A stretch of 21,917 bases of DNA, taken from a virus. The notes under the pieces were generated by a model that saw only the letters and a list, made by a program, of their open reading frames with translations, was not told where the DNA came from and made no database searches. This document shows positions 732-17,765 of the stretch, one piece after another. Numbering within the stretch: position 1 is the first letter of the stretch; every line of letters begins with the position of its first letter. The DNA is taken from positions 1-21,917 of IMG/VR virus record IMGVR_UViG_3300002835_007898. One strand, given 5' to 3'. Both the position numbers and the translations under genes were made by a program.

Positions 732-848
732 TTACTGAGTTACGTCTGCGTATATGAGTGTTGCAACTTCTTGCATTATAGTTGCAACATTAGTGTTGGT
801 TGTTGCGCTTGTTAATACAACTTCGCTAGATATTATTTTTGGTTTCAT
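732..848 (-). CDS. short hypothetical ORF, 38 aa
   Basis: ATG at 848-846, TAA at 734-732, 38 codons. It fills the gap between the ATP-grasp/Hint fusion gene (ends 871) and the sulfotransferase gene (starts 721), spaced like its neighbours. The product begins MKPKIISSEVV and is rich in Thr, Val, Ala and Ser, with no Cys, no membrane segment and no recognised motif. VAT occurs twice in it, because the DNA carries two GTTGCAAC palindromes. No Shine-Dalgarno is visible, as for most genes here. It could be a small virion or regulatory peptide, or untranslated leader of the sulfotransferase gene. Support is position and an open frame only. Confidence 0.4.
   Translation of the reverse strand: MKPKIISSEVVLTSATTNTNVATIMQEVATLIYADVTQ
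759..789 (-). other. possible RNA hairpin from paired GTTGCAAC palindromes
   Basis: GTTGCAAC occurs at 760-767 and 781-788, 21 bp apart. Because each copy is self-complementary, the two can pair into a 9-bp stem (759-767 with 781-789) around a 13-nt loop. It lies in the short ORF just upstream of the sulfotransferase start. No U-tract follows in the direction of transcription, so it is not a typical terminator. It may be fortuitous. Confidence 0.25.
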
Positions 849-870: not shown

Positions 871-2406
871 TTATTTCTGCGGTCCCGGTGAATCACAAAA
901 CCAACATTGGTCACAACACCAAACGGCACATGTCCATGAAGCACACCAACTAAAACAAGCACCATTGTGTTGTATAAATGTTAACCCGAGCGATTCATCA
1001 GCAACTGGTAAAAATATATCATTTAATTCTACGTTTATGTCATATACTCTTCTAGTTACATAAACAATCCCCAGATTGATTATTTTAGATTTAATTAATG
1101 TATTATTTACATAATCAAAAAATATAATTGAGTCATTTATTCTAAATTTATTAGTATAAGCAAATGTGGTTTCTAAGGTATCATATTCTTCAATCATCAT
1201 TGAACTTCCCGGTAAATCTTCATAAACTATACCATTTTCCAAAGTTACTTTAATCATTAATGATTCTCTTGTTTGACCACCTAAATCAATAACAGTTGAT
1301 GACCCTGTCGAAAATGTGGTTAAATCAGATGAGAATACCCCTGAATTAATGTCAGGGATATACTGAACTTCTCCTGTTTCTGAAGTTTCATTTTCGGGAA
1401 CCCATGTTAAATTAATGGTTTTAATAAGATCGTTTACTAAAATTTCGTTAGGGTGTTTCAAAGTTCCGTCAGCATACAAAATTGGGGTGTCATCATCTAA
1501 AAAGTAACTTGGCCCAAAATTTCTAAATGTCGGGGATTTACTCATCCATAATGGTCTAGCGTCCTGATTCATTTTACCGTTAGAATCGTATGTGGTATCC
1601 CAACTATTGAATTTAACAGGACTTGTCATTATGTATGAACCTAAATGTAAACAATCAAGATTACCTCCATATATAATATCTAAACTTCTGATTACCCCCA
1701 TTTTATCATTTACGATGTTTTCTGAATTTGTATGAAATTCTTCCATAAATTCATGATCCATTAATGAGCTTTTTAAGGTTTCGAGGTTAGCTAAAGAATC
1801 TATCTTGTAAAATTTAGGGTAGTCAATATAATTTGTGTTTGGAAATCTAGTTTTTACAATGTAATTTGGGGTTGTCCCTGGTGTTATATGTAATTCATTT
1901 AACTGGTCAATGTTTAATGACGGTTCTGATTCTGAATTATAGTATACATTTGGGGTATATGGTTTTTCTGATATTAACCTGTGAAAATTTACCTTATCTT
2001 TAGCATATTCTTCATCCACAACAGCTGTAGTATCATAAGATGTTCTAATAATTAAAATACCATTTCCGTCTTCAATATGTGGCACCGTTATTGAATTTTT
2101 AGCAACTTCATAATGTGTGAATGTACCATTAATTTCAGACATTATTTCTGACATTTTATCTTTTAAACTAACATTTATAGATGTAGTATCAAATACGTTT
2201 TCTTTCTCATTATTGATAAAATTACCGTCTGTTGATATAAAATGTAAATTAACAATTGAGTTGTCTAATAAAAATTGCTTAAAGGTTCCCCAATCCAAGT
2301 CAGGTACAATTTTATTGTGAACGTCAACATTCGTATTTGTCTCAACTATTCGTAAGTCACCATTATCATCTTTTAAGAAGTCAGTGCCTAATATAAGTGC
2401 TTTCAT
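871..2406 (-). CDS. ATP-grasp-like / Hint fusion protein with Cys/Trp-rich C-terminal tail
   Basis: 511 aa in three parts. (1) Residues about 1-296 look like an ATP-grasp domain in permuted order. D9 and ETNTN (22-26) resemble the metal-binding D...ExN end of ATP-grasp folds but sit at the N-terminus. IIRTSYDTTAVVDEEYAKDK (119-138) may belong to the Rossmann-like pre-domain. YIVKTRF (182-188), EFMEEF (219-224) and GVIRSLDIIYGG (237-248) resemble the ATP-binding lysine, hinge and sheet. (2) Residues about 298-481 look like a Hint/intein fold: DDDTPILYADG (304-314) matches its first strand, VYDINVE (454-460) and FIQHN (477-481) match its C-terminal blocks. The usual first Cys is absent (F or Y there) and no clear block-B His is seen. 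(3) Residues 482-511 hold seven Cys and four Trp. Asn cyclisation at HN could release this tail. Domain calls are by eye; substrate and function are unknown. A phage structural role is a plausible alternative. Confidence 0.7.
   Translation of the reverse strand: MKALILGTDFLKDDNGDLRIVETNTNVDVHNKIVPDLDWGTFKQFLLDNSIVNLHFISTDGNFINNEKENVFDTTSINVSLKDKMSEIMSEINGTFTHYEVAKNSITVPHIEDGNGILIIRTSYDTTAVVDEEYAKDKVNFHRLISEKPYTPNVYYNSESEPSLNIDQLNELHITPGTTPNYIVKTRFPNTNYIDYPKFYKIDSLANLETLKSSLMDHEFMEEFHTNSENIVNDKMGVIRSLDIIYGGNLDCLHLGSYIMTSPVKFNSWDTTYDSNGKMNQDARPLWMSKSPTFRNFGPSYFLDDDTPILYADGTLKHPNEILVNDLIKTINLTWVPENETSETGEVQYIPDINSGVFSSDLTTFSTGSSTVIDLGGQTRESLMIKVTLENGIVYEDLPGSSMMIEEYDTLETTFAYTNKFRINDSIIFFDYVNNTLIKSKIINLGIVYVTRRVYDINVELNDIFLPVADESLGLTFIQHNGACFSWCASWTCAVWCCDQCWFCDSPGPQK
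874..963 (-). other. Cys/Trp-rich 30-residue tail, candidate released peptide
   Basis: Encodes residues 482-511, directly after the Hint His-Asn. Cys spacing is C-x3-C-x4-C-x3-C-C-x2-C-x2-C (residues 484, 488, 493, 497, 498, 501, 504), with Trp at 487, 491, 496 and 502; the end is DSPGPQK. Three of the Trp sit in repeated W-C, W-x-C or W-C-C contexts. Composition is unlike the rest of the protein. It could be a metal- or disulfide-bearing peptide, a RiPP-like core, or a structural tail. Confidence 0.5.
964..1515 (-). other. Hint/intein-like domain with C-terminal His-Asn
   Basis: Encodes residues 298-481 of the fusion protein. The start (DDDTPILYADGTLKHPNEI) parallels the intein pattern C-x3-DT-x-ILxxDG, but the nucleophilic Cys position is Phe or Tyr. 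The end has VYDINVE, then hydrophobics, then IQHN followed by Gly. The penultimate His plus Asn are the residues used for C-terminal Asn cyclisation. Loss of residue 1 but retention of HN would predict C-terminal cleavage without splicing. This is an inference from Hint chemistry. Confidence 0.6.
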
Positions 2407-2439: not shown

Positions 2440-3069
2440 TTAAATTAAACTCTTTGATTTTTTCACATATTCAAAGCCAACATTACCCGCAATAACAACT
2501 CTATCTTTTGTTGAATTTGGTGATTTGTCAGGTGAATGTGGTAAAAACCCTTCCATTATTAGTAGATCCCCCTCCTCAGGAAGATAATAATACCTATTTC
2601 CGTCATTTCCCCCAATTATTAATGTACCTTCTGTATCTAGTAAATTATTTGGCATTTGAACATAATATACAAAAGTGTATGTTGGGTGAAAAGAATTAAC
2701 GAGTTTTTGTAAATCAATGTGGTTGTGTAAAGTAACCTCGCCCCCTCTTTTAAAATCGTCTTGCTTTGGTTTTCCCTTTTTAACAATATTAATCCAGGAA
2801 TTGACGTTAGTTTTATTAAAAGGTGAAATGTCCACACTCCTTAATTCGTAACAACTTTGTACCCCAAATTTAATTATTTCTTCAATAGAATTGGTTGGTT
2901 TCATTTCGTTTTGAAAATCAAAGCTCGACCAATCTCCCATGTAAGCGTAGTTATCTTTTGGTGAGTATGAGCTTGATTTTAAAAATACATTAACATCATC
3001 AATGACATTTATTGATTGTATTTTTGTTTTATATATGACAACGTTTTTTTCAAAAACTATTTCTTCCAT
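2440..3069 (-). CDS. 2OG-Fe(II) oxygenase family protein
   Basis: 209 aa. The C-terminal half has the double-stranded beta-helix pattern seen in marine-phage 2OG oxygenases. LHNH (114-117) is a candidate for the first metal ligands, TFVYYVQMP (132-140) is the 'vyYv.vP' strand, EEGDLLIMEGFLPHSP (165-180) carries the distal His178, and R190 in KDRVVIAGN would bind the 2-oxoglutarate carboxylate. The first ligand pair is not the clean H-x-D, so the metal site assignment is less certain than in neighbouring paralogues; H128 is an alternative. Such enzymes hydroxylate proteins, nucleic acids or small molecules; the substrate is unknown. It is transcribed immediately before the ATP-grasp/Hint gene, 33 nt away, and after the six-Cys protein gene (4 nt). 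A long A-tract precedes its ATG. Confidence 0.72.
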   Translation of the reverse strand: MEEIVFEKNVVIYKTKIQSINVIDDVNVFLKSSSYSPKDNYAYMGDWSSFDFQNEMKPTNSIEEIIKFGVQSCYELRSVDISPFNKTNVNSWINIVKKGKPKQDDFKRGGEVTLHNHIDLQKLVNSFHPTYTFVYYVQMPNNLLDTEGTLIIGGNDGNRYYYLPEEGDLLIMEGFLPHSPDKSPNSTKDRVVIAGNVGFEYVKKSKSLI

Positions 3070-3094
3070 TAAACTAAATTATGGTTTTTTTTTT
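3070..3094 (-). promoter_or_regulatory. A-rich element before the 2OG oxygenase start
   Basis: Reading toward the gene: ten A, then CCATAATTTAGTTTA, then ATG. It resembles A7-8-C-x-(T)TAAT elements before the genes starting at 3361, 4017 and 5553. It overlaps the end of the preceding coding region (Lys-Lys-Thr-Ile-Ile-stop). It may serve as an A-rich translation initiation signal in place of a Shine-Dalgarno. Confidence 0.3.
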
Positions 3095-3361
3095 GATTTT
3101 TAAATGGTTCACGTAACTATCCTCAATAATTTTCCACTTACCTAATGGACATGAGCCATATTCATTTGTAAATATTTTTTCATTTATTGGGCACCCACAA
3201 GGGCCGCAATAATGCAACCATTCTTTGTTATGTATCCCTTCTTTTCTAAATTCACATTTTAAACAAAAATCGAGTCTTTCTTTTGCTAATTTTAATCCGG
3301 TCTCATCGGGATTAAAAGTTATTATACCTAAATTAATAATTTCTATAGGATCGAATTTCAT
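3074..3361 (-). CDS. small six-cysteine, zinc-ribbon-like protein
   Basis: 95 aa from ATG at 3361-3359; an in-frame TTG one codon upstream is less likely because the ATG overlaps the upstream TGA as TGATG. Cysteines are C33, C36 (CLKC), C52, C55, C57 (CGPCGC) and C71 (CPLGKW). This arrangement, CxxC, then CxxCxC, then CPxGKW, recurs in small uncharacterised proteins and would suit a zinc or Fe-S site. No membrane segment or enzymatic motif is seen. It lies between two 2OG oxygenase genes, suggesting an accessory or metal-handling role in the same pathway, which is inference. The C-terminus KKKTII is encoded by the A-rich junction element. Confidence 0.65.
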   Translation of the reverse strand: MKFDPIEIINLGIITFNPDETGLKLAKERLDFCLKCEFRKEGIHNKEWLHYCGPCGCPINEKIFTNEYGSCPLGKWKIIEDSYVNHLKIKKKTII

Positions 3362-4017
3362 CAAATTAACGTTTTTTTATTCCCATCCAATAAATTAATA
3401 TTCCCTGCTACCGATATTCTTTCAACCCCATCACTAAAAAATGGTGAAACATAGTGAGTTAAGTATGATGGAAAAATAAACATTTCTCCGTTTGATGGTA
3501 AATGTGATATTTGTGTTATTGGTGAGATAAAAGAATTAACAATATTAATAAATTGATTATTATTTAGTTCATTTTTTTTTATATTTTGACCATACATAAA
3601 AGATATACTACCATTTTTAAACCCCCTCTCAATGCTTGGCTCCGATTTAATTTTTTCAGGTATGTCTACATATATAACAAATGAAATGTCTGAGGAATGA
3701 AAATGTGGTGAGTTAAAATCTTTAGTTTTTTGAAAATTGATCCATAAATCTTCAAGATGATATTTGAAATTGTAATTTGGTTGTTTTCTGTGTTTCCCAA
3801 TTTCATTAATATAATTCTCAATAAATACAAAAATTCTATCCTTAAAATAGGAAACATTTTCTGAACTATACTTAAATGAGGAATTAAAAGATATTGATTT
3901 TATTTTTTCATTAATTAGTTGTTCATTTTTACCAACCAATAATAGTTCTTCACATAATTGCATATCGACATTAACGCTCATCAATTCTGGACCAAAATTA
4001 TACTTTTTAAATTCCAT
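3361..4017 (-). CDS. 2OG-Fe(II) oxygenase (PF13759-like)
   Basis: 218 aa. Motifs follow the putative 2OG-Fe(II) oxygenase family common in marine phages. HFHSSDISFVIYVDIP (105-120) supplies H105/H107 and D110 and the 'sfv.Yv.iP' strand; GSISF (136-140) follows. NGEMFIFPSYLTHYVSPF (176-193) carries distal His188; R200 in ERISVAGNI would hold 2-oxoglutarate. The N-terminal 90 residues are less conserved and likely helical. It overlaps the upstream oxygenase gene and the downstream six-Cys gene by one base each. The C-terminal NKKTLI mirrors HKKTLI of the upstream oxygenase and arises from a near-identical junction sequence. Substrate unknown; protein hydroxylation or sugar modification are both possible. 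Confidence 0.8.
   Translation of the reverse strand: MEFKKYNFGPELMSVNVDMQLCEELLLVGKNEQLINEKIKSISFNSSFKYSSENVSYFKDRIFVFIENYINEIGKHRKQPNYNFKYHLEDLWINFQKTKDFNSPHFHSSDISFVIYVDIPEKIKSEPSIERGFKNGSISFMYGQNIKKNELNNNQFINIVNSFISPITQISHLPSNGEMFIFPSYLTHYVSPFFSDGVERISVAGNINLLDGNKKTLI
3362..3378 (-). promoter_or_regulatory. repeated gene-junction element (A7-C-x-TTAAT)
   Basis: Immediately upstream of the six-Cys gene: AAAAAAACGTTAATTTG then ATG. It matches the element at 4018-4034 at 14 of 17 positions. It encodes the end of the upstream oxygenase (Lys-Lys-Thr-Leu-Ile-stop). The A-tract sits about 10-16 nt before the start, near where a ribosome-binding site would be expected. Confidence 0.4.
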
Positions 4018-4577
4018 TATATTAATGTTTTTTTATGATTTTCAATCTTCTTTAATTTTAACCAACTAACTAACGAATATCTAGTACCCGATTCTATTGG
4101 CATTACTCTATGAAAGACGTTCGACGGGAAAATATATAAATTACCGGCACCAAATTCCATTTTAGTTTGTTTATTATTTATTATCAATTCAAAATCACCC
4201 CCAGTGTAATTTTCATTTAATTGGATTACAATAGTATAGAATCTATCCTTAAATATTGTGTCATTAGAGTCTATGTGCCAATCAAAATAATCTCCCACAT
4301 TATATTTTGTAAATTGAAATGTTTCAATAGAGGGTTCAAAACCTTTTATTTTAACTTTTTCCATTACTTTTGAAAGCGTTATATTATTAATATGTCCTAG
4401 GTCATCAATAAATGCAACCTTTGATTTTCGAGTTTCTTTTTTATTTAATTTAATAAGCTCAATTTCGGAATATGTTTCAGCGTCTAACAAATCAAGTTCA
4501 TCTAAACATTTTTTTATTATCGCCCCACATTCTTCTTTAGGTAAAAATTCAGTAATGGTGTATATATTATTGATCAT
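4017..4577 (-). CDS. prolyl-4-hydroxylase-type 2OG-Fe(II) oxygenase
   Basis: 186 aa. The core is a textbook P4H/PKHD-type arrangement. YNVGDYFDWHIDSND (92-106) gives H101-x-D103; TIVIQLNENYTGGDFEL (115-131) is the 'l.vyLN..feGGe' region; GAGNLYIFPSNVFHRVMPI (143-161) gives distal H156; TRYSLVSWL (165-173) gives R166 for the co-substrate. This is the most clearly catalytically complete of the five oxygenases in the window. Members hydroxylate prolyl or other residues in proteins; the substrate here is unknown. It starts one nucleotide beyond the DUF2061 gene and overlaps the next oxygenase gene by one base. Confidence 0.87.
   Translation of the reverse strand: MINNIYTITEFLPKEECGAIIKKCLDELDLLDAETYSEIELIKLNKKETRKSKVAFIDDLGHINNITLSKVMEKVKIKGFEPSIETFQFTKYNVGDYFDWHIDSNDTIFKDRFYTIVIQLNENYTGGDFELIINNKQTKMEFGAGNLYIFPSNVFHRVMPIESGTRYSLVSWLKLKKIENHKKTLI
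4018..4034 (-). promoter_or_regulatory. repeated gene-junction element (A7-C-x-TTAAT)
   Basis: Immediately upstream of the oxygenase starting at 4017: AAAAAAACATTAATATA then ATG. Near-identical to 3362-3378. It also encodes the last residues (Lys-Lys-Thr-Leu-Ile-stop) of the upstream oxygenase. It could be a translation signal or a scar of cassette duplication. Confidence 0.4.
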
Positions 4578-4578
4578 T

Positions 4579-4785
4579 TTATTTTTTTAACCCGAATTTT
4601 ATCCATTTATACCAAACCCTTTCATGTAAAAAATATATAATTGGTTTTAATACAAGTTCACCTAAACCAACCATACCAGCCCACTTTAATGGTAGTCCAG
4701 CAGATACTGTTAAGATTATTGTAGTTAAAGTACCTACAAATCTGTAACTAATACTTTTAGCTATGTGTCGTTTTACCTGTGGCAT
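4579..4785 (-). CDS. DUF2061 small membrane protein
   Basis: 68 aa. The sequence follows the DUF2061 pattern: a basic start (KRHIAKSISYRFVGT), two hydrophobic segments at about residues 17-33 and 35-52, and the family's YFLHERVWYKW near the end (52-62). Predicted to be a small inner-membrane protein with two transmembrane helices. DUF2061 has no known biochemical role but tends to accompany sulfate-activation genes such as APS kinase, and here it follows the HxGH nucleotidyltransferase and APS kinase directly. Its start lies 29 nt inside the nucleotidyltransferase gene and has the clearest Shine-Dalgarno in the window. Family assignment is from recall of the motif; role in sulfation is inference. 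Confidence 0.82.
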   Translation of the reverse strand: MPQVKRHIAKSISYRFVGTLTTIILTVSAGLPLKWAGMVGLGELVLKPIIYFLHERVWYKWIKFGLKK

Positions 4786-5122
4786 CTATTTCTCCTTTTC
4801 TAATTTTAGTTCCGCTTATTTCAGCAATTTCTGTAGGTGGTTCGTGGTATATTACTTCATACCCAACACCCCTACCATAATTAACAGATTCAATATCTGG
4901 GATAATAGATATCATGATCTTATCCCAATTATTTTGAAAGAATGGTTCGTTTTGTAACATGAATAACACTTCTTGTGCTGTTTTGGGGTTATTTTCATCA
5001 ACTTGCACATCTCTAATTGCTACCCAAACGTTTTTCCCTTTGTTTAATTGTTGGTTAATCAACCATTCGTGTCCAGCATGCCAATTTTGCCATCTCCCAA
5101 TGTAAATTGCATATTTTTTCAT
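4757..5122 (-). CDS. HxGH nucleotidyltransferase, possible mini ATP sulfurylase or NMNAT-like enzyme
   Basis: 121 aa, a single cytidylyltransferase-fold domain. YIGRWQNWHAGHEWLI (7-22) carries the HxGH motif (H15-x-x-H18) that binds nucleotide triphosphate; EISGTKIRKG (101-110) is the ISxTxxR motif that closes the active site. IPDIESVNYGRGVGYEV (74-90) is a conserved middle region. The family transfers AMP or CMP onto an acceptor. The ISGT form also occurs in ATP sulfurylases, and the adjacent APS kinase makes sulfate a possible acceptor; NMN adenylyltransferase-like activity is the main alternative. It overlaps the APS kinase gene by 4 nt (ATGA-type) and the DUF2061 gene by 29 nt, implying translational coupling. 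Confidence 0.8.
   Translation of the reverse strand: MKKYAIYIGRWQNWHAGHEWLINQQLNKGKNVWVAIRDVQVDENNPKTAQEVLFMLQNEPFFQNNWDKIMISIIPDIESVNYGRGVGYEVIYHEPPTEIAEISGTKIRKGEIDATGKTTHS
4792..4797 (-). promoter_or_regulatory. Shine-Dalgarno for the DUF2061 gene
   Basis: AAGGAG, six nucleotides before the ATG at 4785, inside the nucleotidyltransferase coding sequence. It stands out because most other starts in the window have only A-rich leaders. It fixes the DUF2061 start. Confidence 0.75.
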
Positions 5123-5553
5123 GGTAATATAATATTAAGTAATTTATTAGTGGTTTCTTCTATTGTTTGATTTGTGGTATCTAGATCCAAATAATTTTCA
5201 GTAGGTGGATCATAGTCATTAACTGCAAAATGTTCTCTACCTCTAATTTCGGTGGTGTAAACATAAATTTCTGTAACCTGATTTTCAGATTTAAAGTTTT
5301 CTCTTTGATCTTTATAGGGAGAAACTAATGAAACAACAACCGAATACCCCTTGATACTCAAGAACTTAGCAATATCCTGTGCTCTTTCGATGTTTTTACG
5401 CCTACCTGCTTCGGAATAATCTTTATTTTTAAAAATATCACGTAGATCATCACCGTCAATATGAACGGTAGTTTCAGCTGGAAGATGTTTTATTAATTCT
5501 AGCGCTAAGGTTGTTTTCCCTGATCCGGGTTGACCTGTAAACCAATATATCAT
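5119..5553 (-). CDS. cysC: adenylylsulfate (APS) kinase, short form
   Basis: 144 aa against about 200 for cellular CysC. FTGQPGSGKTT (5-15) is the P-loop; HIDGDDLRDIF (31-41) matches the CysC 'DGDnlR' motif; RRKNIERAQDIAKFLSIKG (51-69) and VSPYKDQRENF (77-87) match 'R.eNirR.aevAkl' and 'iSPy...R'. YDPPTENYLDLDT (115-127 region) matches 'YEpPenPdl.ldT'. It would phosphorylate APS to PAPS in the cytoplasm, the donor for sulfotransferases such as the one at the left edge. The lid and inter-motif loops appear trimmed. A 36-nt gap separates it from the upstream glycosyltransferase gene. Family assignment is strong; use for sulfation rather than assimilation is inferred from neighbours. Confidence 0.88.
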   Translation of the reverse strand: MIYWFTGQPGSGKTTLALELIKHLPAETTVHIDGDDLRDIFKNKDYSEAGRRKNIERAQDIAKFLSIKGYSVVVSLVSPYKDQRENFKSENQVTEIYVYTTEIRGREHFAVNDYDPPTENYLDLDTTNQTIEETTNKLLNIILP

Positions 5554-5577
5554 ACATATAATATAATGGTTTTTTTT
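5554..5577 (-). promoter_or_regulatory. A-rich leader before APS kinase gene
   Basis: In the only noticeable gap of this part (36 nt): eight A, then CCATTATATTATATGT, then ATG. The A8-CCAT-(T/A)-AT start resembles the leader at 3070-3094. No Shine-Dalgarno is present. Candidate A-rich translation signal. Confidence 0.3.
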
Positions 5578-5589
5578 GAAAAAACAAAA

Positions 5590-6735
5590 TTAAATCATAC
5601 CTCTATTATAGAACCTAAAACCAGTTACCTTTTCATATAATTTTTCACCCGGAGATAGGTTTGGTAACCCCAAATTCAAATCTTGGTTTTTAATTATAAA
5701 ATGTTCATTGATTTTATATAACCAATCAACACCAAAATTATGTGCTATTTGACCAATAACAAGACATTGAATTATTGGTGACCATTTGTGATGACTTAAA
5801 TGCCATATACCGCCAAAATCATGATTAAAAAAGTCTTTTAAGCCATATAAACTTTCTATTGTATGCTCATTTCTTCTTAGATCTACACCACCACAACAAT
5901 CACAAGTGAAATTTTTATCTAAATGGTTTTTAAAAGTTAATGGAAATGTAAAATCGTTTTCAAGATAGGTGCCACTTTTACGTTCTTGTAATATCTGGAA
6001 AAACCACTTATCACATAAAAACGCTTCGTTATTTTTAATGCTATTATAATAATCATCACTTATCTCCATCAAATTTAGATGTATCATAAGTTGTTCCACA
6101 TAGCAAGCCCCATAACCTTTATCATAGGAATCTATTTTTTCTTTGTTCTTATAATAATGATCTAATGATCTTTCGGTAGCTTCAGCGAATAATTCATAAT
6201 CATTAACACATAATAAATTCATATTAGGTACTTCCCCCACAAAGAAATTTTTAATTTTATTTTCACTGTGTTGATCTTTAAAATCATTAAATGGAAACCC
6301 ATATGCATTCATTGAGCTAATTAAATAGTCATTGAATCCTTTTGGGGTTGTGTTTGGGCCCAGATCTGGAAAGTCCTTATGTGCATAAATGACTGGTAGA
6401 TCAGATTTGAAATCTATTTTTTTAGTTAACATTGTATCAATATCAATATGTAAAAATCTTTCAGACATCGCTTTAAAGACTTTCATTTTAACAACACTAA
6501 ACGTATTTACATCTGTTTTTGATAAAACATCAACATCAATGTTCTCATATGGTATCCCAATTTCTTGAATTTGTTTGGCTATAGTTTCATTGGTATATAA
6601 TGAAATCTTCCCGTAGTTCTTATTTGTAAAAAGAGTACTTAAGACCTGTGAATATATCATTTCTTTCCATATGATTTGAGTATATGGTATATCCAAATTA
6701 AAATTGCTTGGTATGTAGCTATGGACAATCTTCAT
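5590..6735 (-). CDS. DxD glycosyltransferase-like protein (DUF6734-like)
   Basis: 381 aa. The N-terminus MKIVHSYIPSN and the segment RFLHIDIDTML (93-103) with a D98-x-D100 motif resemble GT-A-fold, retaining-type glycosyltransferase-like proteins grouped under DUF6734; recall of the family is moderate. DxD normally binds the metal-nucleotide sugar. A C-x-C-C cluster (TCDCCGG, near residue 276-282) and GIWHLSHHKWSP (about 312-323) late in the sequence are unusual; the latter could supply a metal-binding His. No signal or membrane segment. It overlaps the upstream glycosyltransferase-like gene at its ATG (TAATG). Together with the next two genes it suggests assembly of a surface or protein-linked glycan. 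Sugar donor and acceptor unknown. Confidence 0.68.
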   Translation of the reverse strand: MKIVHSYIPSNFNLDIPYTQIIWKEMIYSQVLSTLFTNKNYGKISLYTNETIAKQIQEIGIPYENIDVDVLSKTDVNTFSVVKMKVFKAMSERFLHIDIDTMLTKKIDFKSDLPVIYAHKDFPDLGPNTTPKGFNDYLISSMNAYGFPFNDFKDQHSENKIKNFFVGEVPNMNLLCVNDYELFAEATERSLDHYYKNKEKIDSYDKGYGACYVEQLMIHLNLMEISDDYYNSIKNNEAFLCDKWFFQILQERKSGTYLENDFTFPLTFKNHLDKNFTCDCCGGVDLRRNEHTIESLYGLKDFFNHDFGGIWHLSHHKWSPIIQCLVIGQIAHNFGVDWLYKINEHFIIKNQDLNLGLPNLSPGEKLYEKVTGFRFYNRGMI

Positions 6736-7676
6736 TAAATTATTTTCTTATTAAATTTACCAATTTCTTTTTTATATTCATCAACCCTATATTTTCTATA
6801 TTCTTCGTTAAGTTTTAATGCGTGTTTATTAAACCATACATGTTCATAATTTAAATTTTCAACGTGGTCTATTCTGTTGGGGTCTTTCAACCAAAATAAA
6901 GCTTTACCTGGTGCTGGTGCATCACCTATAGTGTGTGATTCAGAATATGACATATATATATTATTCTCAATACTCTCCACTTTAGCGTTTAACTTTCTAA
7001 TAGCATAACCTAGTATTCCTTGATCTGCAATTAACCATAACCATTCTGGAATATACTCATATTCTCTTGTGATTATATCTAAATGTCTTCTTAAATAATC
7101 GTCCCTTAATGACTCACTATTCATAAAAATAAATGATGTATTTGGTATAAACATGTTTTGATTAAAATCTTCAATTCCACCAATTCTATTAATTTGATTT
7201 TCAAAAACAAAAAACTCGCCTCTTTGAATTTCCCATTGTGTATGAACCAAATCGTAATTCCACACCCAACTAGGCATTTCACTTCTAACAATGAAATCTA
7301 AATCTAGAAATAGATATGGTACTGGCTCTTTACCCATAACAATAGATTTACCGGTAGTCCAAAATCTACCCGGTTCAATGTATGAGTATTCTTTATTGAA
7401 TGTTTCTAAAACATCCGTATCTACTTCATCCCATAATCCCAACATTCCTTTTTTCTTATAAAATTCATACCCAACATTATCAGTGTATAATTTTGTTACC
7501 CCTACATACTTTTTCGCGTTTCTTACTGCTAATTCCTGTATAACTAATTCATAATCAACAATATCATATTCATCGTCGGGTAAATCAAACATTTTCATTC
7601 TATTATACCCTTGAGCATCATTCTTGTGAAAAAATGGTGCGGTCCAATTAACAAAGATTACTTTTAAATTATTCAT
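6735..7676 (-). CDS. DxD glycosyltransferase-like protein
   Basis: 313 aa. VPYLFLDLDFIV (119-130) contains a D125-x-D127 motif at the end of a hydrophobic strand, as in GT-A glycosyltransferases. FIPNTSFIFMNSE (about 176-188) and LIADQGILGYAIRK (about 216-229) fit the acceptor-side and 'DQ' regions of such folds, and YEHVWFNKH (279-287) late in the sequence could be the C-terminal metal His. General layout matches the 5590-6735 protein, so the two may be distant paralogues. No transmembrane segment. The stop overlaps the next start (TAATG); the start overlaps the upstream glycosyltransferase-like gene by 8 nt. Exact specificity unknown. Confidence 0.65.
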   Translation of the reverse strand: MNNLKVIFVNWTAPFFHKNDAQGYNRMKMFDLPDDEYDIVDYELVIQELAVRNAKKYVGVTKLYTDNVGYEFYKKKGMLGLWDEVDTDVLETFNKEYSYIEPGRFWTTGKSIVMGKEPVPYLFLDLDFIVRSEMPSWVWNYDLVHTQWEIQRGEFFVFENQINRIGGIEDFNQNMFIPNTSFIFMNSESLRDDYLRRHLDIITREYEYIPEWLWLIADQGILGYAIRKLNAKVESIENNIYMSYSESHTIGDAPAPGKALFWLKDPNRIDHVENLNYEHVWFNKHALKLNEEYRKYRVDEYKKEIGKFNKKII

Positions 7677-8364
7677 GTATAAAATATAAGTCTTGTTTTA
7701 AATCATTGGTTTTATATAAAGGTACCCCCGAATTTAAAATTGATATACCTATTATTAAACCCTCACCTCTACCTAATGGTTTGTTATTAAATTTAACATC
7801 ATTATTGTTTATTTCTTTTTTTAAACAATTAAAAATTTTAAAAAAGTCATTCAGCTTTTCATCTCTACTAATAACGAAAAATCTTTCACCAATTAATTTA
7901 GCATCGTTAATTTTTAAATTATTTTTTTTACAATGATTTTCAATATGATCAAAATAATCATCTTTAATGATGTTCTTAAATTCTTGATATATTAAAGGGA
8001 TTTCTAACCAATCTTCAGTATAATAAATCCCTGGGTTAAATTTTGCTTCACAGAAGTTATCAATATTTAATGTGATATCAGAATCAATATATAATATCGT
8101 CTCATATTTTTTTAAAGCGATTTCACAAATCAATAATTTATCCGTATAAGATTTGTCTACTTCAGTATACAGGACAATGATAACATTTAAGTCCTTAAAC
8201 TCTTCTGGACTGTCAGTTAAAACAAGAATATCTACTGGGTAAGATTTATAGGTCTTAATATTTTTAATCGCCAAATCAATATAATAATTGTCTTCTTCTT
8301 TTTCTATTATACCATTTTTAACTAATGGAGATTTAAATACAAATAAACAAATAGCTTTATTCAT
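7669..8364 (-). CDS. small DSD glycosyltransferase-like protein
   Basis: 231 aa from ATG at 8364-8362. An in-frame TTG two codons upstream is less likely because the ATG gives the same 8-nt overlap with the upstream gene that recurs locally. ETILYIDSDITL (88-99) contains a D94-S-D96 motif after a hydrophobic strand, and VDILVLTDS (44-52) fits an earlier Rossmann strand. This resembles the GT-A nucleotide-sugar-binding half. The protein is short and lacks a clear second half motif beyond GRGEGLIIG (about 198-206). Likely donor-binding, but enzymatic activity is uncertain. It sits first in a run of three glycosyltransferase-like genes. Confidence 0.6.
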   Translation of the reverse strand: MNKAICLFVFKSPLVKNGIIEKEEDNYYIDLAIKNIKTYKSYPVDILVLTDSPEEFKDLNVIIVLYTEVDKSYTDKLLICEIALKKYETILYIDSDITLNIDNFCEAKFNPGIYYTEDWLEIPLIYQEFKNIIKDDYFDHIENHCKKNNLKINDAKLIGERFFVISRDEKLNDFFKIFNCLKKEINNNDVKFNNKPLGRGEGLIIGISILNSGVPLYKTNDLKQDLYFIHE

Positions 8365-8938
8365 AATCAATTTTATGGTTTTGTATTAATGTTAAGCTTT
8401 GCCCAACCAAAACATCTCTTCGCCCATCTGTAACTGGTTTTATAAAATGTGGGTGTGTCAATCCACCTGGAAAGATAATAATATCACCCAATTCTAAATT
8501 ATAAGAAATGTCTTGTCTTGGAAAACAAAGTTCGCCACCTTTAAAATTATTATTAAGTAAACCAACAAATGTTAAACCACTAAAATCCCAATGAACATTC
8601 TTTTCTGAAAAAATTGTATTGTCTCTATAATAATGTAATAAAAACATATCCCTCCATTTTGTTTTAACAAAATCTTTTATATTTTTTATTGTTTCGTGAG
8701 ACGCGTTTAATCCAATACCATTTTCAATATCATAAATTTTTAGGTAGTCGTCTAAAAGCGGATATTCAATATTATTGAACCAAAAATCATTAATTTTATA
8801 AAATAAACTCATATCAATTTTATCTACATCAATCCTATCAATACCACCAATATTATCACGAACTAATAATAATTCATCAATAATAGATTTTGGTATTATA
8901 GATTTAAAAACGAAAATATCTGAATCTATTTTTATCAT
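8357..8938 (-). CDS. 2OG-Fe(II) oxygenase
   Basis: 193 aa with a complete catalytic signature. NVHWDFSGLTFVGLLNN (114-130) has H116-x-D118. FKGGELCFPRQD (132-143) is the 'f.GGel.fp' turn, and LGDIIIFPGGLTHPHFIKPV (150-169) contains the distal His (162 or 164). TDGRRDVLVGQSL (170-182) contains the Arg that salt-bridges 2-oxoglutarate. The N-terminal 90 residues are family-specific. It is translated next to another oxygenase (one-nucleotide spacing at 8939) and overlaps the following glycosyltransferase-like gene by 8 nt. Substrate unknown; location between radical SAM and glycosyltransferase genes would suit either peptide or sugar hydroxylation. Confidence 0.85.
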   Translation of the reverse strand: MIKIDSDIFVFKSIIPKSIIDELLLVRDNIGGIDRIDVDKIDMSLFYKINDFWFNNIEYPLLDDYLKIYDIENGIGLNASHETIKNIKDFVKTKWRDMFLLHYYRDNTIFSEKNVHWDFSGLTFVGLLNNNFKGGELCFPRQDISYNLELGDIIIFPGGLTHPHFIKPVTDGRRDVLVGQSLTLIQNHKIDYE

Positions 8939-9649
8939 TTATATTTCAATATTAAAATTAATTACACATCTATGGGTTTTACCATAGAATGGTTTAACTG
9001 AATGTATAATATCAGCCGGCCACATCATTAACATACCTTTTTTAGGTCTTATAAAGTGAGACATTCCTCTGATATGAAACGTAAAAACACCACTGTATGG
9101 ATGATCTGCGATTGGCTCACCATCTGATAAATAATATCCACCAACAAAACTTAAAGGTGCTGATTCATAAATAGACCACCTACAATGGTTGTGTTGATTA
9201 TGTCCTCTTCCAGAAGTTGGCTCATAATATTGTATCCAACTTTCTGTCACCTTTGGGTTGTTGTTATGTTTAAAATTTAATAAATTTAAAAAATCAATAA
9301 AACCATCTGTACATCGTTTCTTAATTAGTTTAACACATTCTTCTTCTCTATCTAAAAACTCATTTGTGGGCACAAGAAAACGACTACCTATTGGGTTGAA
9401 TTCTGTCGGTTCAACCCATTTATCATGTTTACCATAATTTATTTCATATGTACTTTGTCTATCCTGATCATATTGTTCAGGTAATTCTTGCCCCATTAAT
9501 TTTTGTTCGGGTGTTAACTCATTAAACCCTAAATTATAAACCAAATCATGTAAATCATGATCATCAAATTGTTTCATGTATACTGGTATGGGGGCTAAAA
9601 GATATAGATTGTCTTGACCGCTTGGCCAAAGTGGATTGTGAAAATACAT
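8939..9649 (-). CDS. 2OG-Fe(II) oxygenase-like protein
   Basis: 236 aa. The C-terminal half carries the oxygenase barrel. GRGHNQHNHCRWSI (147-160) offers H150, H153 and H155 as first metal ligands, and LSFVGGYYLSDGEP (166-179) is the 'sgvyYl..g' strand. KKGMLMMWPADIIHSVKPF (203-221) gives distal His216 and THRCVINFNI (225-234) gives Arg227. The first ligand set is His-rich rather than H-x-D, a variation seen in some PF13759-type proteins, so activity is likely but not certain. The N-terminal 100 residues (MYFHNPLWPSGQD...) show no known motif. It immediately follows the last radical SAM gene, sharing one base (TAATG). Confidence 0.75.
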   Translation of the reverse strand: MYFHNPLWPSGQDNLYLLAPIPVYMKQFDDHDLHDLVYNLGFNELTPEQKLMGQELPEQYDQDRQSTYEINYGKHDKWVEPTEFNPIGSRFLVPTNEFLDREEECVKLIKKRCTDGFIDFLNLLNFKHNNNPKVTESWIQYYEPTSGRGHNQHNHCRWSIYESAPLSFVGGYYLSDGEPIADHPYSGVFTFHIRGMSHFIRPKKGMLMMWPADIIHSVKPFYGKTHRCVINFNIEI

Positions 9650-10842
9650 TAGCTTAATTTTAAAATATTATATGTTATTGGGAATATATCTTTAAATTTT
9701 TGATCCCTAGATTCATCTAGTAAATTATTTATTTTAATAAATGAATTCCAGTCCTGTTCTGTTGATTCTTTACTATTAAGGTATTGCGTAATATTTGTAA
9801 ATTGTTCTTTAATTTCTGGGCTTTTTACCGGTAAACTATTATAAGATTCATTAACATATTTTTCAATATCTATTTTTAAGTTTTCTGGAATATTGTTTAT
9901 GCAATAGTATTTTGGTTGTGATAAAAAGTTACAATGTATTCGAATATTATTCTCAATTGCAAATTCAGCGACTTCGTTAAAATCTAGGACATTCATAATT
10001 GAAACTGTGTAACAAATATGAAACTTGAAATTTTTTAAATCTTTTGTTTTATCTAACCATAATAAAATATTATTTTTTACTTCATTCCAGTTTGCACCAT
10101 ATCTTAAATAATTAAATTTATCACCAACACCGTCTATACTAAATGAAATATCAGAAAGCTCAAAGTTTTTTAATATTTTAAAATATTCATCTTTAAAAAT
10201 AGTACCATTAGTGTTAAAATGAACATACTTATTTTTAGCAATACCAGTATATACACATTTTTCTAAAATGGACCATTGTTTTTTCATTAACATTGGTTCA
10301 CCACCATATAGATCAAGTATTTTTACTGATGATATATTTTTTTCAATTTCATCCCAAACCATACTGTCGTCAGCAAATGGTAAAGAACAAGATTTTGTAA
10401 TCTGATTTAGTTTTTCATCTGAAATATCTGGGTTTAGAACTGATTTATGTTCTTTTTTCCAGTTTGAAGATGAATATACATTACAAATTCTACAGGATAA
10501 ATTACATATGTTACCCATGTTAAGTTCTAAAAAATGAATTTCGTTTTCTGATAAATTTAAATGTGAAATTCTTTGATTATCTCTCATCCTTTTACTTTCA
10601 ACCCCAGAATCTTCTAAATCCCAACAGCCGTTACATTCGGGAGATTTAATTCCTTTTTTAAAATCTTCTTTTATTTTTTTTAATGTGGGAGATTGTTGTG
10701 CTTCTTGAAATGTGGTGTTTAAAACACTCATAACATTATCCCCATCATCTTTAAGATACACTTCACTTGCAATACAACATGGTGTAAACTTCCCGTCTGT
10801 TGTTACTCTCAAACCATTAGTTATGTTTGCACACTTAATCAT
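9649..10842 (-). CDS. radical SAM protein with N-terminal Twitch/SPASM cluster
   Basis: 397 aa. The N-terminus has the auxiliary Fe-S cysteines C4, C22-C23 (TPCCIAS) and C70-x-x-C73 (PECNGCW). The radical SAM 4Fe-4S triad is CNLSCRIC (113-120); YGGEPML (179-185) is the SAM-binding GGE motif; HFNTNGT follows as the next barrel strand. The order, auxiliary-cluster domain first and barrel second, matches the 'N-terminal Twitch' radical SAM group, which is inverted relative to ordinary SPASM enzymes. The end carries the shared signature R-DQKF-KDIFP. Such enzymes usually modify peptides or sugars through a 5'-deoxyadenosyl radical; this one's substrate is unknown. Last of eight such genes in transcription order. 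Confidence 0.88.
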   Translation of the reverse strand: MIKCANITNGLRVTTDGKFTPCCIASEVYLKDDGDNVMSVLNTTFQEAQQSPTLKKIKEDFKKGIKSPECNGCWDLEDSGVESKRMRDNQRISHLNLSENEIHFLELNMGNICNLSCRICNVYSSSNWKKEHKSVLNPDISDEKLNQITKSCSLPFADDSMVWDEIEKNISSVKILDLYGGEPMLMKKQWSILEKCVYTGIAKNKYVHFNTNGTIFKDEYFKILKNFELSDISFSIDGVGDKFNYLRYGANWNEVKNNILLWLDKTKDLKNFKFHICYTVSIMNVLDFNEVAEFAIENNIRIHCNFLSQPKYYCINNIPENLKIDIEKYVNESYNSLPVKSPEIKEQFTNITQYLNSKESTEQDWNSFIKINNLLDESRDQKFKDIFPITYNILKLS

Positions 10843-10843
10843 A

Positions 10844-11866
10844 TTATATTGTTAAATTATGTCTTATTCTTTCAGTTTTTGGTAGCTGATTATATATTTC
10901 CAAGAGATTAGAATATTCAGGGTGGTTTGGATTACCAATATCTGTTTTTTCAAAATGTTCGGGGGTATATGTCCCCCAATTAACAACCCTATTATAAAAA
11001 ACTGACCAGTTCTTCTTTTTCATTGAGAATATATTTTTAACCATGTCATAGAATAACCCCATCTCTTTATAATTTTCATATTGAACAACAAAAGATAGTG
11101 TTATATCGTGTAGATATGGTAAACTAGAAATGAAATCTAGGTTACTTTGTATATCTTCCCATTTACCTCCGATTCTAACTTTATTCTCATATGTTTCTTT
11201 AGTCGCTGAATCAACAGATATCTCACAACTACGCACGTATTTGTGAATGTTTTTCATTCTTGACCAGTTAGAATCATTCCATAATGTTCCGTTGGTGTGT
11301 AAATGTATCTTTTTAAGTTTTGGGTATTTGTTAAAATCGAAACCCATCATCCATTTTCTAAATGTTCTAGAAAAAAACGGGTCGCCAGATCCTGTACATT
11401 CAATATGTTCTAAACCGTTACTTAATTCTTTTTCTATGTGCTGTATTAATTGTTCGGTCCTTTCTCTTTCTTCACCTTCATAATTAATAAATTTGGTTCT
11501 ACACGATGGGCACTTTAGGTTACAACTTTGATCAAAATTCATTTTGATACTGGTTGGAAGACCGGTATCGTATTTTTCTCTATTTTTTAAAAACTCATCT
11601 TTTTTAACAAAACCATGTGTTTTACCTTCTTTAAGACCGGTTAGTTTAGGACATCTTGATTCAATACAAAATTTATAGGAACCATCTAACATACTTTGTC
11701 TAACCTGTTCCGCAATATCTGATTTCCAATTAGTTTCAATAGACATTGGGTCACCCAAATTAACAGGTAACCAATTAGGACAACACATAAATGTTTTATG
11801 GTCAAATAACTCTGAAAAGTTAAATGGTTGTGTACATACCCAATCTTTCTTATCTAATGGTATCAT
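10844..11866 (-). CDS. divergent N-terminal-Twitch radical SAM protein
   Basis: 340 aa, the shortest of the eight. Auxiliary cysteines are C11, C28-C29 (MCCPNW), C67 and C72 (FCIESRC); here the second pair is C-x4-C rather than C-x2-C. The radical SAM triad CNLKCPSC (115-122) is intact. The GGEP motif is replaced by TGSGDPFF (158-165), keeping an acidic residue and Pro. HLHTNGT matches the following strand. The C-terminus stops at ERIRHNLTI without the R...FP signature of the others. It overlaps the upstream paralogue by 4 nt. Likely still binds SAM, but it is the most divergent copy and may act on a different substrate. Confidence 0.82.
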   Translation of the reverse strand: MIPLDKKDWVCTQPFNFSELFDHKTFMCCPNWLPVNLGDPMSIETNWKSDIAEQVRQSMLDGSYKFCIESRCPKLTGLKEGKTHGFVKKDEFLKNREKYDTGLPTSIKMNFDQSCNLKCPSCRTKFINYEGEERERTEQLIQHIEKELSNGLEHIECTGSGDPFFSRTFRKWMMGFDFNKYPKLKKIHLHTNGTLWNDSNWSRMKNIHKYVRSCEISVDSATKETYENKVRIGGKWEDIQSNLDFISSLPYLHDITLSFVVQYENYKEMGLFYDMVKNIFSMKKKNWSVFYNRVVNWGTYTPEHFEKTDIGNPNHPEYSNLLEIYNQLPKTERIRHNLTI

Positions 11867-13176
11867 GTTAAACTTGGATAGCCTTTTTTCTCCATTAAAA
11901 ATGTCTTATCATCAATTGTAGATTCAATCTCATCAAACCAATCTTTATACTGTGGATTTACTTCTAAAAATGACTCATTTCTTCTATTATCTAATATATA
12001 TGTTGATCTAAATAAGTGTCTTCTGGCATCTTGAATATCCCCTTCAAATGGTGTATACAAGTGTTTTTCCCAACCATCCTTTGCTTGTTTAACAATACTT
12101 CTAGTATAACTGTCACCAATTGTTTCTATGTAGGTATTCAGTTTATTAATCAAACTAGTTTTTAAGTTATCTGGTAAAATTCTAATATCATACCACATCG
12201 GAGATGTTAATAAATTATTTAAAGAAACCGTACTAGGGTTGACGCCAATACTTATAGCCATATCAATTAATTCATTGATGTGAAATATGTTTAAGATACT
12301 AATTGTGGGAGATATGTGGACTTCCATTCCTTTATCAACACAAGATTTAATGTTTTGATAAACCGCATTCCATTTTGTTCCATTTCTAACAACTTCAGCT
12401 AATTTACCAACAGCATCTAAAGAAGCGAATAGAAAAATTCTACCTTTTGGATCTTTTAAGAAGTGATCCCATAAACCATGTAAATCCCATTTTTTAAAAT
12501 GTATATGGCTGAAATTTGTGTTGTATCTAATTCTAACATCAGTTCTACCTGCAGCTATTAATTTTTCCAAAATAATATAATGTTCATCCATTATAAGCGG
12601 CTCTCCACCAGCAAAATAAATTTCTTCAACCTCATTTATAAATTGATCAACATATTTGAATATATCTTCTTTACTATCAATATTAAAATTGATCACCCCG
12701 TTGTTATTTACGTGAGTTCCAAATAGTGCAGCTTCATCATCATACCATTTACTACTGGAAAATATGCCACACATTCTACACTTAAAATTACACATATTGG
12801 ACCATCTGAAATCCCAATATTTTAGTACGAACTTATCATTATGCCCAGTTTCCTTATTTGTCTGGCTTATTAATTCATTAATACCATCATTGAAAAAATA
12901 GTTATGTGTTTTTCTTGGGCTTAATAAACCGCTATCCTCAATTAAAAAACATCTTTCGCATAGTTTAGGTCTGTTACCGGATAACATATCTTTTCTAATG
13001 CTCATCATCTGTTCATTGTTCCAGATTTCTTCTAATGTATTATCTTTAGTATTCCCTATAGGCATACCATATGGTGCCATACAGCAAGGGTATATGTCAC
13101 CATTGGGTTGTATATTTAAATGTATCCAAGGTAGTACACAAAATGTGTTTGATATATTTTCTGAATTATTAATCAT
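11863..13176 (-). CDS. N-terminal-Twitch radical SAM protein
   Basis: 437 aa. N-terminal cluster residues: C13 in FCVLPWIHL, C31-C32 in YPCCMAP, and C73-x-x-C76 in KLCERCF, with NGDIYPCC being the usual 'dG...PCC' context. The radical SAM triad is CNFKCRMC (129-136). FAGGEPLIMDE (188-198) is the GGEP motif; IRYNTN follows. The C-terminal signature is RRNESFLEVNP. About 40 residues longer than the 397-aa copies, mainly through an insertion between the cluster and GGEP regions. It overlaps both neighbours by 4 nt, indicating translational coupling. Intact by motif; substrate unknown. Confidence 0.88.
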   Translation of the reverse strand: MINNSENISNTFCVLPWIHLNIQPNGDIYPCCMAPYGMPIGNTKDNTLEEIWNNEQMMSIRKDMLSGNRPKLCERCFLIEDSGLLSPRKTHNYFFNDGINELISQTNKETGHNDKFVLKYWDFRWSNMCNFKCRMCGIFSSSKWYDDEAALFGTHVNNNGVINFNIDSKEDIFKYVDQFINEVEEIYFAGGEPLIMDEHYIILEKLIAAGRTDVRIRYNTNFSHIHFKKWDLHGLWDHFLKDPKGRIFLFASLDAVGKLAEVVRNGTKWNAVYQNIKSCVDKGMEVHISPTISILNIFHINELIDMAISIGVNPSTVSLNNLLTSPMWYDIRILPDNLKTSLINKLNTYIETIGDSYTRSIVKQAKDGWEKHLYTPFEGDIQDARRHLFRSTYILDNRRNESFLEVNPQYKDWFDEIESTIDDKTFLMEKKGYPSLT

Positions 13177-14408: not shown

Positions 14409-14411
14409 AAT

Positions 14412-15752: not shown

Positions 15753-16393
15753 TAAATGATCTTCTGTTTTGGCGCAACATTATTAAATGTGTCGATTGAT
15801 TTATTAACATATTTTGGATCTTCAATTAAAATTCCATGGTTCCCATTACCACTTTTATCAAAGGTTTTAAATTTAGAATTTTGTTGGAAATCAATATTAA
15901 TATACATATTTTTCTTTGTATAATCAAATGATGAATCATATATTATTATTTGATTGATCTCCCCGTTAAACCATTTTTCATTTTCATTATTATACGGATA
16001 AAGAGCGCCAATTAGTATCTTTTTATTTGAATAATCAACAATATTACCCTTAATTTTTGAGTCCATTAATATATCATTGAAATAAAGACTAATATACTCA
16101 GAAACAGTCACTTTTATATCCATTATTTGTCTAATATCATCAACTACAAATCTAACATCATTGTAGATGTGTCCTGTTGTATACCAAACAAACTTAACAA
16201 TATTTGGGAACTCTAAAAATAGCCCCATAGGGTAACCGTCTTTAGAGATCACACAAGATTCATTCTCGATAAAATCAATTAACTTAAAATTAGCGTGTAT
16301 TGTAAAATCATTCTCTATTGAGGAATAATCTTTAATATTCGTATTATTCTTTGTTTTATTTGGAATGAAATATGATGTTTTATTGAATATCAT
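15752..16393 (-). CDS. LamG/concanavalin-like jelly-roll protein
   Basis: 213 aa, no catalytic motif. The pattern is that of a LamG-like beta-sandwich. NDFTIHANFKL (28-38) is the edge strand, SLYFNDILMDSKI (about 102-114) is the 'l.vNg..v' strand, and ILIGALYPYNN...KWFNGEINQIIIYD (about 126-153) is the typical 'iG......fnGkI.ei.iYn' block. A short DKSGNGNHGIL segment near the end is also common in LamG proteins. No signal peptide. It may bind carbohydrate or serve as a decoration domain. It starts 14 nt inside the upstream radical SAM gene and ends on the start of the next. A second LamG-like protein after the preceding radical SAM gene suggests a repeated two-gene cassette. Confidence 0.7.
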   Translation of the reverse strand: MIFNKTSYFIPNKTKNNTNIKDYSSIENDFTIHANFKLIDFIENESCVISKDGYPMGLFLEFPNIVKFVWYTTGHIYNDVRFVVDDIRQIMDIKVTVSEYISLYFNDILMDSKIKGNIVDYSNKKILIGALYPYNNENEKWFNGEINQIIIYDSSFDYTKKNMYINIDFQQNSKFKTFDKSGNGNHGILIEDPKYVNKSIDTFNNVAPKQKII

Positions 16394-17762: not shown

Positions 17763-17765
17763 TTT

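What the first reader, a model, noticed from the sequence alone, without database searches (positions are those of the whole stretch)
874..963. Seven-Cys, four-Trp tail placed exactly after a Hint His-Asn: candidate self-released peptide
The last 30 residues of the 511-aa protein have spacing C-x3-C-x4-C-x3-CC-x2-C-x2-C and Trp at four sites, unlike the rest of the protein. They begin immediately after IQHN, the residue pair Hint domains use for Asn cyclisation. Cleavage there would free a compact peptide starting Gly-Ala-Cys. Such peptides are typical RiPP-core or metal/disulfide-binding candidates, and the same gene string holds eight radical SAM enzymes and five 2OG oxygenases. Release and modification are inferences.
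Basis: partly seen in the sequence, partly recalled or inferred. Interest (0 to 1): 0.85.

Follow-up and report, generated by a model that had tools for sequence, protein, structure and literature searches.

The report
Phage protein with self-cutting-type peptide tail
A phage protein carries an intein-like (Hint) fold that has lost the parts needed to cut at its front end but keeps the His-Asn pair that cuts at its back end; right after that pair comes a short, very fast-evolving tail held to a fixed pattern of six cysteines, so the protein probably exists to release or present this small peptide.

Summary
Residues 482-511 of the 511-aa minus-strand ORF (871..2406) hold 7 Cys and 4 Trp directly after His480-Asn481; the other 481 residues hold one Cys. 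IMG/VR holds 13 further full-length orthologues, and all 14 keep HN plus a tail with six Cys (C-x3-C-x3to6-C-x4or5-C-x2-C-x2-C); window Cys497 is not conserved. The domain before HN is a real Hint fold (crop model pTM 0.64; best PDB matches Hedgehog and inteins, Z up to 15; profile match to a canonical Hint of related phages). The N-terminal nucleophile is replaced by Ile/Phe and TxxH by LxxS in all 14; +1 is Gly/Ala/Pro. Only Asn cyclisation (C-terminal cleavage) is left as a reaction. Conservation collapses at Asn481, and in close pairs the tail changes amino acids far faster than the Hint. One orthologue has an S74-like self-cleaving chaperone, with Ser-Lys dyad spacing, right after the tail. 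A 38-aa ORF follows the gene in all 14 and was found nowhere else. Radical SAM genes are not constant neighbours, so the RiPP reading is weak. Best explanation: a C-cleaving-only Hint releasing a hypervariable six-Cys peptide. Cleavage itself is inferred.

The parts
871..2406 (-). 511-aa Hint-fold protein, one copy per related contig
   Evidence: one match in each of 13 related contigs
1519..2406 (-). residues 1-296, conserved N-terminal region without Pfam or PDB match; its invariant motifs (D9, E22-x-N24, K185, E222-E223, R240) recall a circularly permuted ATP-grasp, inference only
   Evidence: no match; motif reading from the alignments
964..1506 (-). Hint (Hedgehog/intein) domain, residues 301-481
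   Evidence: AF2 crop pTM 0.64; Foldseek PDB hits Hedgehog and inteins, E down to 9e-7; VIA Z 12-15; hhalign against a canonical phage Hint family E 1e-5, prob 82%
1501..1503 (-). residue 302 at the intein Cys1 position, Phe here, Ile in the 13 others: N-terminal nucleophile lost
1204..1215 (-). block B: T-x-x-H replaced by L398-x-x-S401 in all 14
1018..1041 (-). block F: D456 (Asp or Glu in the family) and D463 at the usual His F:13; Asp there is also invariant in the canonical Hint family of related phages
964..969 (-). His480-Asn481, block G, predicted cyclising Asn
   Evidence: invariant in 14 of 14; paired with the last residue (440) of the Mtu RecA intein
874..963 (-). hypervariable tail with six conserved Cys (484, 488, 493, 498, 501, 504), predicted released peptide of 30 aa, about 3.4 kDa
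732..848 (-). 38-aa ORF MKPKIISSEVVLTSATTNTNVATIMQEVATLIYADVTQ, constant partner directly downstream
   Evidence: 2-36 nt after the stop in all 14 loci; found in IMG/VR only in these loci
2440..3069 (-). 2OG-Fe(II) oxygenase-like gene directly upstream, present in 11 of 14 loci
3074..3364 (-). 96-aa Cys-rich, zinc-ribbon-like protein (the L005 orthologue matches DUF6171 weakly), present in 11 of 14 loci

Best explanation
The protein is a phage Hint-fold protein reduced to the C-terminal half-reaction. It cannot splice or cut at its N-terminal end: it has no Cys1, no TxxH and no +1 nucleophile. It keeps the block G His-Asn, so Asn481 can cyclise to a succinimide and break the Asn481-Xaa482 bond. 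That would free a peptide of about 26-32 residues with a fixed six-Cys frame and freely changing, aromatic- and Gly-rich loops. The peptide is probably disulfide-bonded or metal-bound and acts apart from the precursor. The changing loops suggest that it meets a changing target (host surface, host factor or rival phage). The constant 38-aa protein is a likely partner. Shown: Hint fold (by model and profile), loss of the N-terminal active site, invariance of HN, conservation break at the bond, conserved Cys frame, fast tail evolution, constant partner gene. Inferred: cleavage, release, state of the Cys, target.
For: Hint fold. HN invariant and N-terminal catalytic residues lost in 14 of 14. The conservation drop at residues 481-484 is among the largest in the protein; mean entropy 0.68 for residues 461-481 against 1.96 for non-Cys positions 482-504. 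In close pairs, amino-acid-changing codons in the last 150 Hint codons versus the tail: L007/L008 4/150 vs 8/29 (Fisher p 6e-5); L014/L015 1/150 vs 5/28 (p 4e-4); L013/L014 15/150 vs 12/28 (p 9e-5). In the sister Hint family of related phages, conservation continues past HN (HN-KG-x3-Q, 28 sequences), so the break is not a general property of HN. Asn-Pro (+1 Pro in 5 of 14) is cut by autocleavage in EscU/FlhB proteins (PMC3189125). A-type BIL domains keep His-Asn, can cleave at their C-terminus and lie in hypervariable regions (PMC7765530); HINT peptidases sit just before variable toxin tips (PMC3482391, PMC4287609). In L016 an S74-like domain with Ser-x4-Lys (SDISFK), the spacing of the catalytic Ser-Lys dyad of endoNF and MyRF (PMC8326128), starts directly after the tail, so its cut would restore the usual tail end.
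Against: No cleavage data. The Hint has lost the N-terminal active site and has Asp at F:13, where inteins mostly have His, a residue implicated in Asn cyclisation (PMC4031507); it could be an inactive scaffold. Many columns near HN are invariant anyway, so HN invariance alone is weak evidence. The crop model is of middling confidence (mean pLDDT 65) and the tail itself is not modelled (pLDDT below 50). No peptide family matches the tail.
Confidence: 0.6

Rival explanations
1. The Hint domain is catalytically dead and serves as a scaffold; the six-Cys tail stays attached as a disulfide- or metal-stapled tip, for instance a receptor-binding or interaction tip of a virion or host-surface protein, and its loops vary because the receptor varies.
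For: Cys1, block B and the usual block F His are absent in all 14. One orthologue (L016) carries an S74-like domain, typical of phage fibres, after the tail. In the 238-kb phage G003 the gene lies about 15 kb before genes that look like baseplate genes (read by eye).
Against: HN and the preceding Gln are invariant although +1 is free to change; a dead scaffold needs no HN. Asp at F:13 is also invariant in the sister Hint family that keeps all other catalytic motifs, so it is not a sign of decay. The gene itself has no fibre features.
Confidence: 0.25
2. The tail is a RiPP-type core modified by the radical SAM and 2OG enzymes of the cluster and released by the Hint domain.
For: Six conserved Cys in about 30 residues recall substrates of radical SAM peptide maturases (from memory). 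The window holds eight radical SAM genes and five 2OG genes, and a 2OG gene is the direct upstream neighbour in 11 of 14 loci.
Against: Radical SAM genes are not constant neighbours: none in contigs G004, G005, G006, G013 (fragments), and 24 kb away in G001. Seven of the window's eight pass the cut-off of the twitch-domain family NF033640 and score far lower with any peptide maturase model; the eighth matches NF033640 weakly. The 2OG neighbour is missing in L013-L015, which keep the tail. No RiPP model matches the tails.
Confidence: 0.07
3. Polymorphic-toxin-like logic: the tail is a variable effector freed by the Hint and the 38-aa protein is its antidote.
For: Hint between a conserved part and a variable tip, with a small gene directly downstream in 14 of 14 loci, the layout of HINT toxins and MafB (PMC3482391, PMC4287609).
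Against: The 38-aa protein is conserved (mean column identity 78%) and does not follow tail variation as an immunity protein would be expected to; no toxin domain or alternative tail cassettes were found.
Confidence: 0.08

Closest known systems
[quoted passage not shown]
   Same: Hint fold, conserved His-Asn end, no need for a nucleophilic +1 residue, sits between a conserved part and a variable C-terminal part.
   Different: No N-terminal nucleophile and no TxxH; the downstream part is only about 30 residues with a six-Cys frame; phage gene.
HINT peptidase domains of polymorphic toxins (PMC3482391)
   Same: Placed just before a diversifying C-terminal part that they are proposed to release.
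   Different: No toxin domain; tiny Cys-rich tail; the downstream small gene does not co-vary.
Canonical Hint domain of a structural-looking protein next to the tail-sheath-like gene in related phages (L113:10879-12639)
   Same: Homologous Hint by profile comparison, Asp at F:13, HN end.
   Different: It keeps Cys1 and TxxH, and conservation continues after HN (KG-x3-Q).
YscU/FlhB/EscU NPTH autocleavage (PMC3189125)
   Same: Self-cleavage after Asn, there before Pro.
   Different: Unrelated protein family and function; the parts stay together.
S74 / intramolecular chaperone autocleavage domains of phage fibres (PMC8326128)
   Same: One orthologue, L016, has such a domain with Ser-Lys spacing right after the Cys tail.
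   Different: Absent from the window protein and the other 12 full-length orthologues.

Membership tests
Hint superfamily (by fold) | Hint (horseshoe beta) fold | tested here: met
   best PDB matches are Hedgehog and inteins, Z 12-15 over about 125-155 residues; hhalign E 1e-5 to canonical phage Hints
Canonical intein or Hedgehog autoprocessing domain | N-terminal nucleophile (Cys/Ser) in block A | tested here: not met
   Phe/Ile in 14 of 14
Canonical intein or Hedgehog autoprocessing domain | block B T-x-x-H | tested here: not met
   L-x-x-S in 14 of 14
Intein | Cys/Ser/Thr at +1 for splicing | tested here: not met
   Gly, Ala or Pro at +1 in 14 of 14
A-type BIL domain | conserved His-Asn at the domain's C-terminal end | tested here: met
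   14 of 14
A-type BIL domain | junction between conserved and hypervariable protein parts | tested here: met
A-type BIL domain | C-terminal autocleavage | not testable with these tools
   needs expression and mass spectrometry
RiPP precursor | constant association with a maturase gene | tested here: inconclusive
   radical SAM not found in 4 of 14 contigs, but those are fragments; no constant position; 2OG neighbour in 11 of 14
RiPP precursor | match to a known precursor family | tested here: inconclusive
   no match in NCBIfam or Pfam; 30-aa queries have little power
Polymorphic toxin | immunity gene co-varying with the variable tip | tested here: not met
   the 38-aa ORF is conserved while tails vary
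DGR variable protein | reverse transcriptase in the phage | tested here: inconclusive
   none found in 14 contigs, including 238-kb and 199-kb ones, but contigs may be incomplete
Circularly permuted ATP-grasp (residues 1-296) | ATP-grasp fold or profile match | tested here: inconclusive
   no Pfam or PDB sequence match; full-length model too poor

The most novel reading that the evidence does not exclude
A phage system, Hint precursor plus obligate 38-aa partner, that uses a Hint stripped down to Asn cyclisation to deliver a family of hypervariable six-Cys mini-peptides: a phage-made, self-released, diversifying peptide effector or receptor ligand, possibly further modified by the enzymes of the same island.
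Probability: 0.3. Interest if true: 0.85.

Novelty: new variant of a known kind. Interest (0 to 1): 0.62.

Why it matters
Hint domains are known for splicing, for N-terminal ester formation (Hedgehog) and for BIL cleavage. A conserved phage family whose Hint has uniformly lost the N-terminal half and kept only His-Asn, with a hypervariable six-Cys peptide at the predicted scissile bond, would be a dedicated C-cleaving Hint used for peptide release. It would give a minimal, testable natural C-cleaving module and point to a class of small, fast-evolving phage peptides that gene finders attach to larger proteins and overlook.

Tried and rejected
T4-type late promoter TATAAATA as the reason for the shared -[LI]I ends of neighbouring proteins: no enrichment. 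Diversity-generating retroelement as the source of tail variation: no reverse transcriptase found. Extra tail cassettes elsewhere in the phages: none by the exact Cys pattern; the other pattern matches do not read as such tails. Pfam, NCBIfam, PHROGs and PDB sequence searches with the whole protein, the N-terminal part and the tail: no significant family; only weak Intein_splicing matches at the right place. Pfam also misses the canonical Hint of a related phage, so a missing Pfam match says little. A weak PDB match of the tail to the NPL4 zinc finger (E 0.078) was not taken as evidence. Relatives in sequenced prokaryote genomes, annotated phages or plasmids: none. Full-length AF2 model: too poor to use (pLDDT 42).

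Full report
What is there. The minus-strand ORF 871..2406 encodes 511 residues. Residues 482-511, GACFSWCASWTCAVWCCDQCWFCDSPGPQK, hold seven of its eight Cys and four of its eight Trp and follow His480-Asn481 directly. Against the Cys content of the other window proteins this has p about 4e-7. The window is one IMG/VR record of 21,917 bases.

Relatives. Searches of IMG/VR seeded on the protein found 13 further full-length orthologues plus one 3' fragment, 60-77% identical to the window protein, one copy per contig. The seeds of two searches lay in the N-terminal half, so a homologue without Hint or tail would have been picked up; none was. All end in F-[IV]-Q-H-N followed by Gly, Ala or Pro and a tail of the form C-x3-C-x3to6-C-x4or5-C-x2-C-x2-C. 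Cys497 of the window is not conserved. A scan of all IMG/VR for the HN-plus-Cys pattern, blind to the rest of the protein, returned 71 stretches; the only ones with 75 or more open residues before HN and a stop within 35 residues after it were nine members of this family. No relative was found in annotated phages, plasmids or 84,980 prokaryote species.

Is it a Hint domain? Pfam gives only weak Intein_splicing matches, but at the right place and profile end. An AF2 model of residues 297-511 from 14 sequences (mean pLDDT 65, pTM 0.64) matches Hedgehog and inteins above everything else in the PDB (Foldseek E down to 9e-7; VIA Z 12-15) and named Hint proteins of phages in BFVD. In the structural alignments with the Mtu RecA intein the aligned range runs from model residue 6 (residue 302), paired with intein residue 1, to model residue 185 (Asn481), paired with residue 440, its last. 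Related phages carry a second, canonical Hint in a protein beside a gene that looks like the tail sheath (C-L-L-F-G-T, T-x-x-H, S-H-N-K-G); profile comparison joins the two families at E 1e-5, prob 82%, HN on HN.

Active site. In all 14 orthologues the Cys1 position is Ile or Phe and T-x-x-H is L-x-x-S; block F Asp is Asp or Glu; F:13 is Asp; His-Asn is kept. Asp at F:13 is also invariant in the canonical sister family, so it does not mark decay. No +1 residue is a nucleophile. Splicing and N-terminal cleavage are therefore not expected from known chemistry (PMC4031507), and Asn cyclisation is the only Hint reaction left. Cleavage before Pro is possible in principle: FlhB/EscU proteins autocleave between Asn and Pro (PMC3189125).

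The tail evolves differently. Mean column entropy is 0.68 bits for residues 461-481 and 1.96 bits for non-Cys positions 482-504, and the break coincides with the predicted scissile bond. In close pairs, amino-acid changes pile up in the tail: L007/L008 4 of 150 Hint codons against 8 of 29 tail codons, many of them multi-base changes; L014/L015 1 of 150 against 5 of 28; L006/L009 shows the same trend (p 0.06). No reverse transcriptase was found and no spare tail cassettes. In the canonical sister family the sequence after HN stays conserved, so the break is special to this family.

An experiment of nature. In L016 the tail is followed by SDISFKENL...VDYSKI, an S74 / intramolecular-chaperone-like domain (best tblastn E 6e-5, to an unannotated phage record, and 3e-4, to a protein annotated as an S74 structural protein; Pfam E 0.098). 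It has Ser and Lys five residues apart, the spacing of the catalytic dyad of endoNF (S911, K916) and MyRF (S587, K592); MyRF is cut just before that Ser (PMC8326128). A cut there would leave a tail end like that of the other orthologues. The L016 Cys module is thus bracketed by two self-cleavage elements. Whether either is active is not known, and L016 lacks a clear trimerising coiled coil.

Surroundings. A 38-aa ORF (window 732..848) follows the gene by 2-36 nt in all 14 loci and was found in IMG/VR only in these loci. It is conserved and does not track tail variation. A 2OG oxygenase gene lies upstream in 11 of 14 loci, a zinc-ribbon-like gene in 11 of 14 and a sulfotransferase-like gene downstream in 11 of 14. 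Radical SAM genes are frequent in these islands but not constant: none in four contig fragments and 24 kb away in G001. Seven of the eight in the window pass the cut-off of the twitch-domain family NF033640, not of a named peptide maturase family. The RiPP reading therefore lacks a constant maturase.

Mechanism. Most likely the Hint domain cyclises Asn481 and frees a six-Cys peptide of about 30 residues; fold, active-site state, conservation and partner gene are shown, while cleavage, release, Cys chemistry and target are inferred. The main rival is a dead Hint scaffold that presents the tail. The nearest precedents are A-type BIL domains and HINT domains before variable toxin tips (PMC7765530, PMC4287609, PMC3482391); this family differs by the loss of the whole N-terminal active site and by the tiny Cys-framed tail. 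The N-terminal 296 residues match no family. Their invariant residues (D9, E22-x-N24, K185, E222-E223, R240) would fit a circularly permuted ATP-grasp, which I could not test.

Verdict. Observation confirmed; interpretation partly supported; a new variant of a known kind.

Noticed in passing
window 2440-16393 (genes ending at 2440, 3074, 3361, 4017, 6735, 13173, 15752); L002, L003, L103, L106: Unrelated enzymes of the island (2OG oxygenases, sulfotransferases, SGNH-like, glycosyltransferase-like, radical SAM, zinc-ribbon protein) share a C-terminal end, mostly K-x-[LI]-I. ORFs of at least 90 aa ending in [LI]I: 7/23 (window), 8/17 (L002), 8/14 (L003), 10/25 (L103), 8/17 (L106), against 0/84 in other regions of related phages (L104, L105, L107, L113, L116, L117). 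Codons vary, so it looks like a shared peptide tail, perhaps for docking or targeting. Unexplained.
   Followed up: partly
window 4579-5553: APS-kinase-like gene (5119-5553), nucleotidyltransferase-like gene (4757-5122) and a DUF2061-like membrane protein (4579-4785), with a sulfotransferase at 2-721: reads as a small PAPS-making and sulfation set. Names other than the sulfotransferase are by eye, not by search.
   Followed up: no
window 9649-20907: Eight radical SAM genes close together, seven over the NF033640 twitch-domain cut-off, interleaved with short proteins (15752-16393, 17766-18347) that look LamG-like by eye; the one searched gave no family.
   Followed up: partly
L113:10879-12639 (phage of L005) and L131-L164: Canonical Hint domain (Cys1, TxxH, SHN-KG) inside a structural-looking protein beside the tail-sheath-like gene, conserved in about 35 IMG/VR loci and not recognised by Pfam.
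   Followed up: yes
L016:6528-6743: S74-like chaperone domain with Ser-Lys dyad spacing fused after the Cys tail in one orthologue only.
   Followed up: yes
L008, about 1,280 and 670 bases before the Hint gene: The upstream 2OG oxygenase gene is present twice in tandem in this locus.
   Followed up: no
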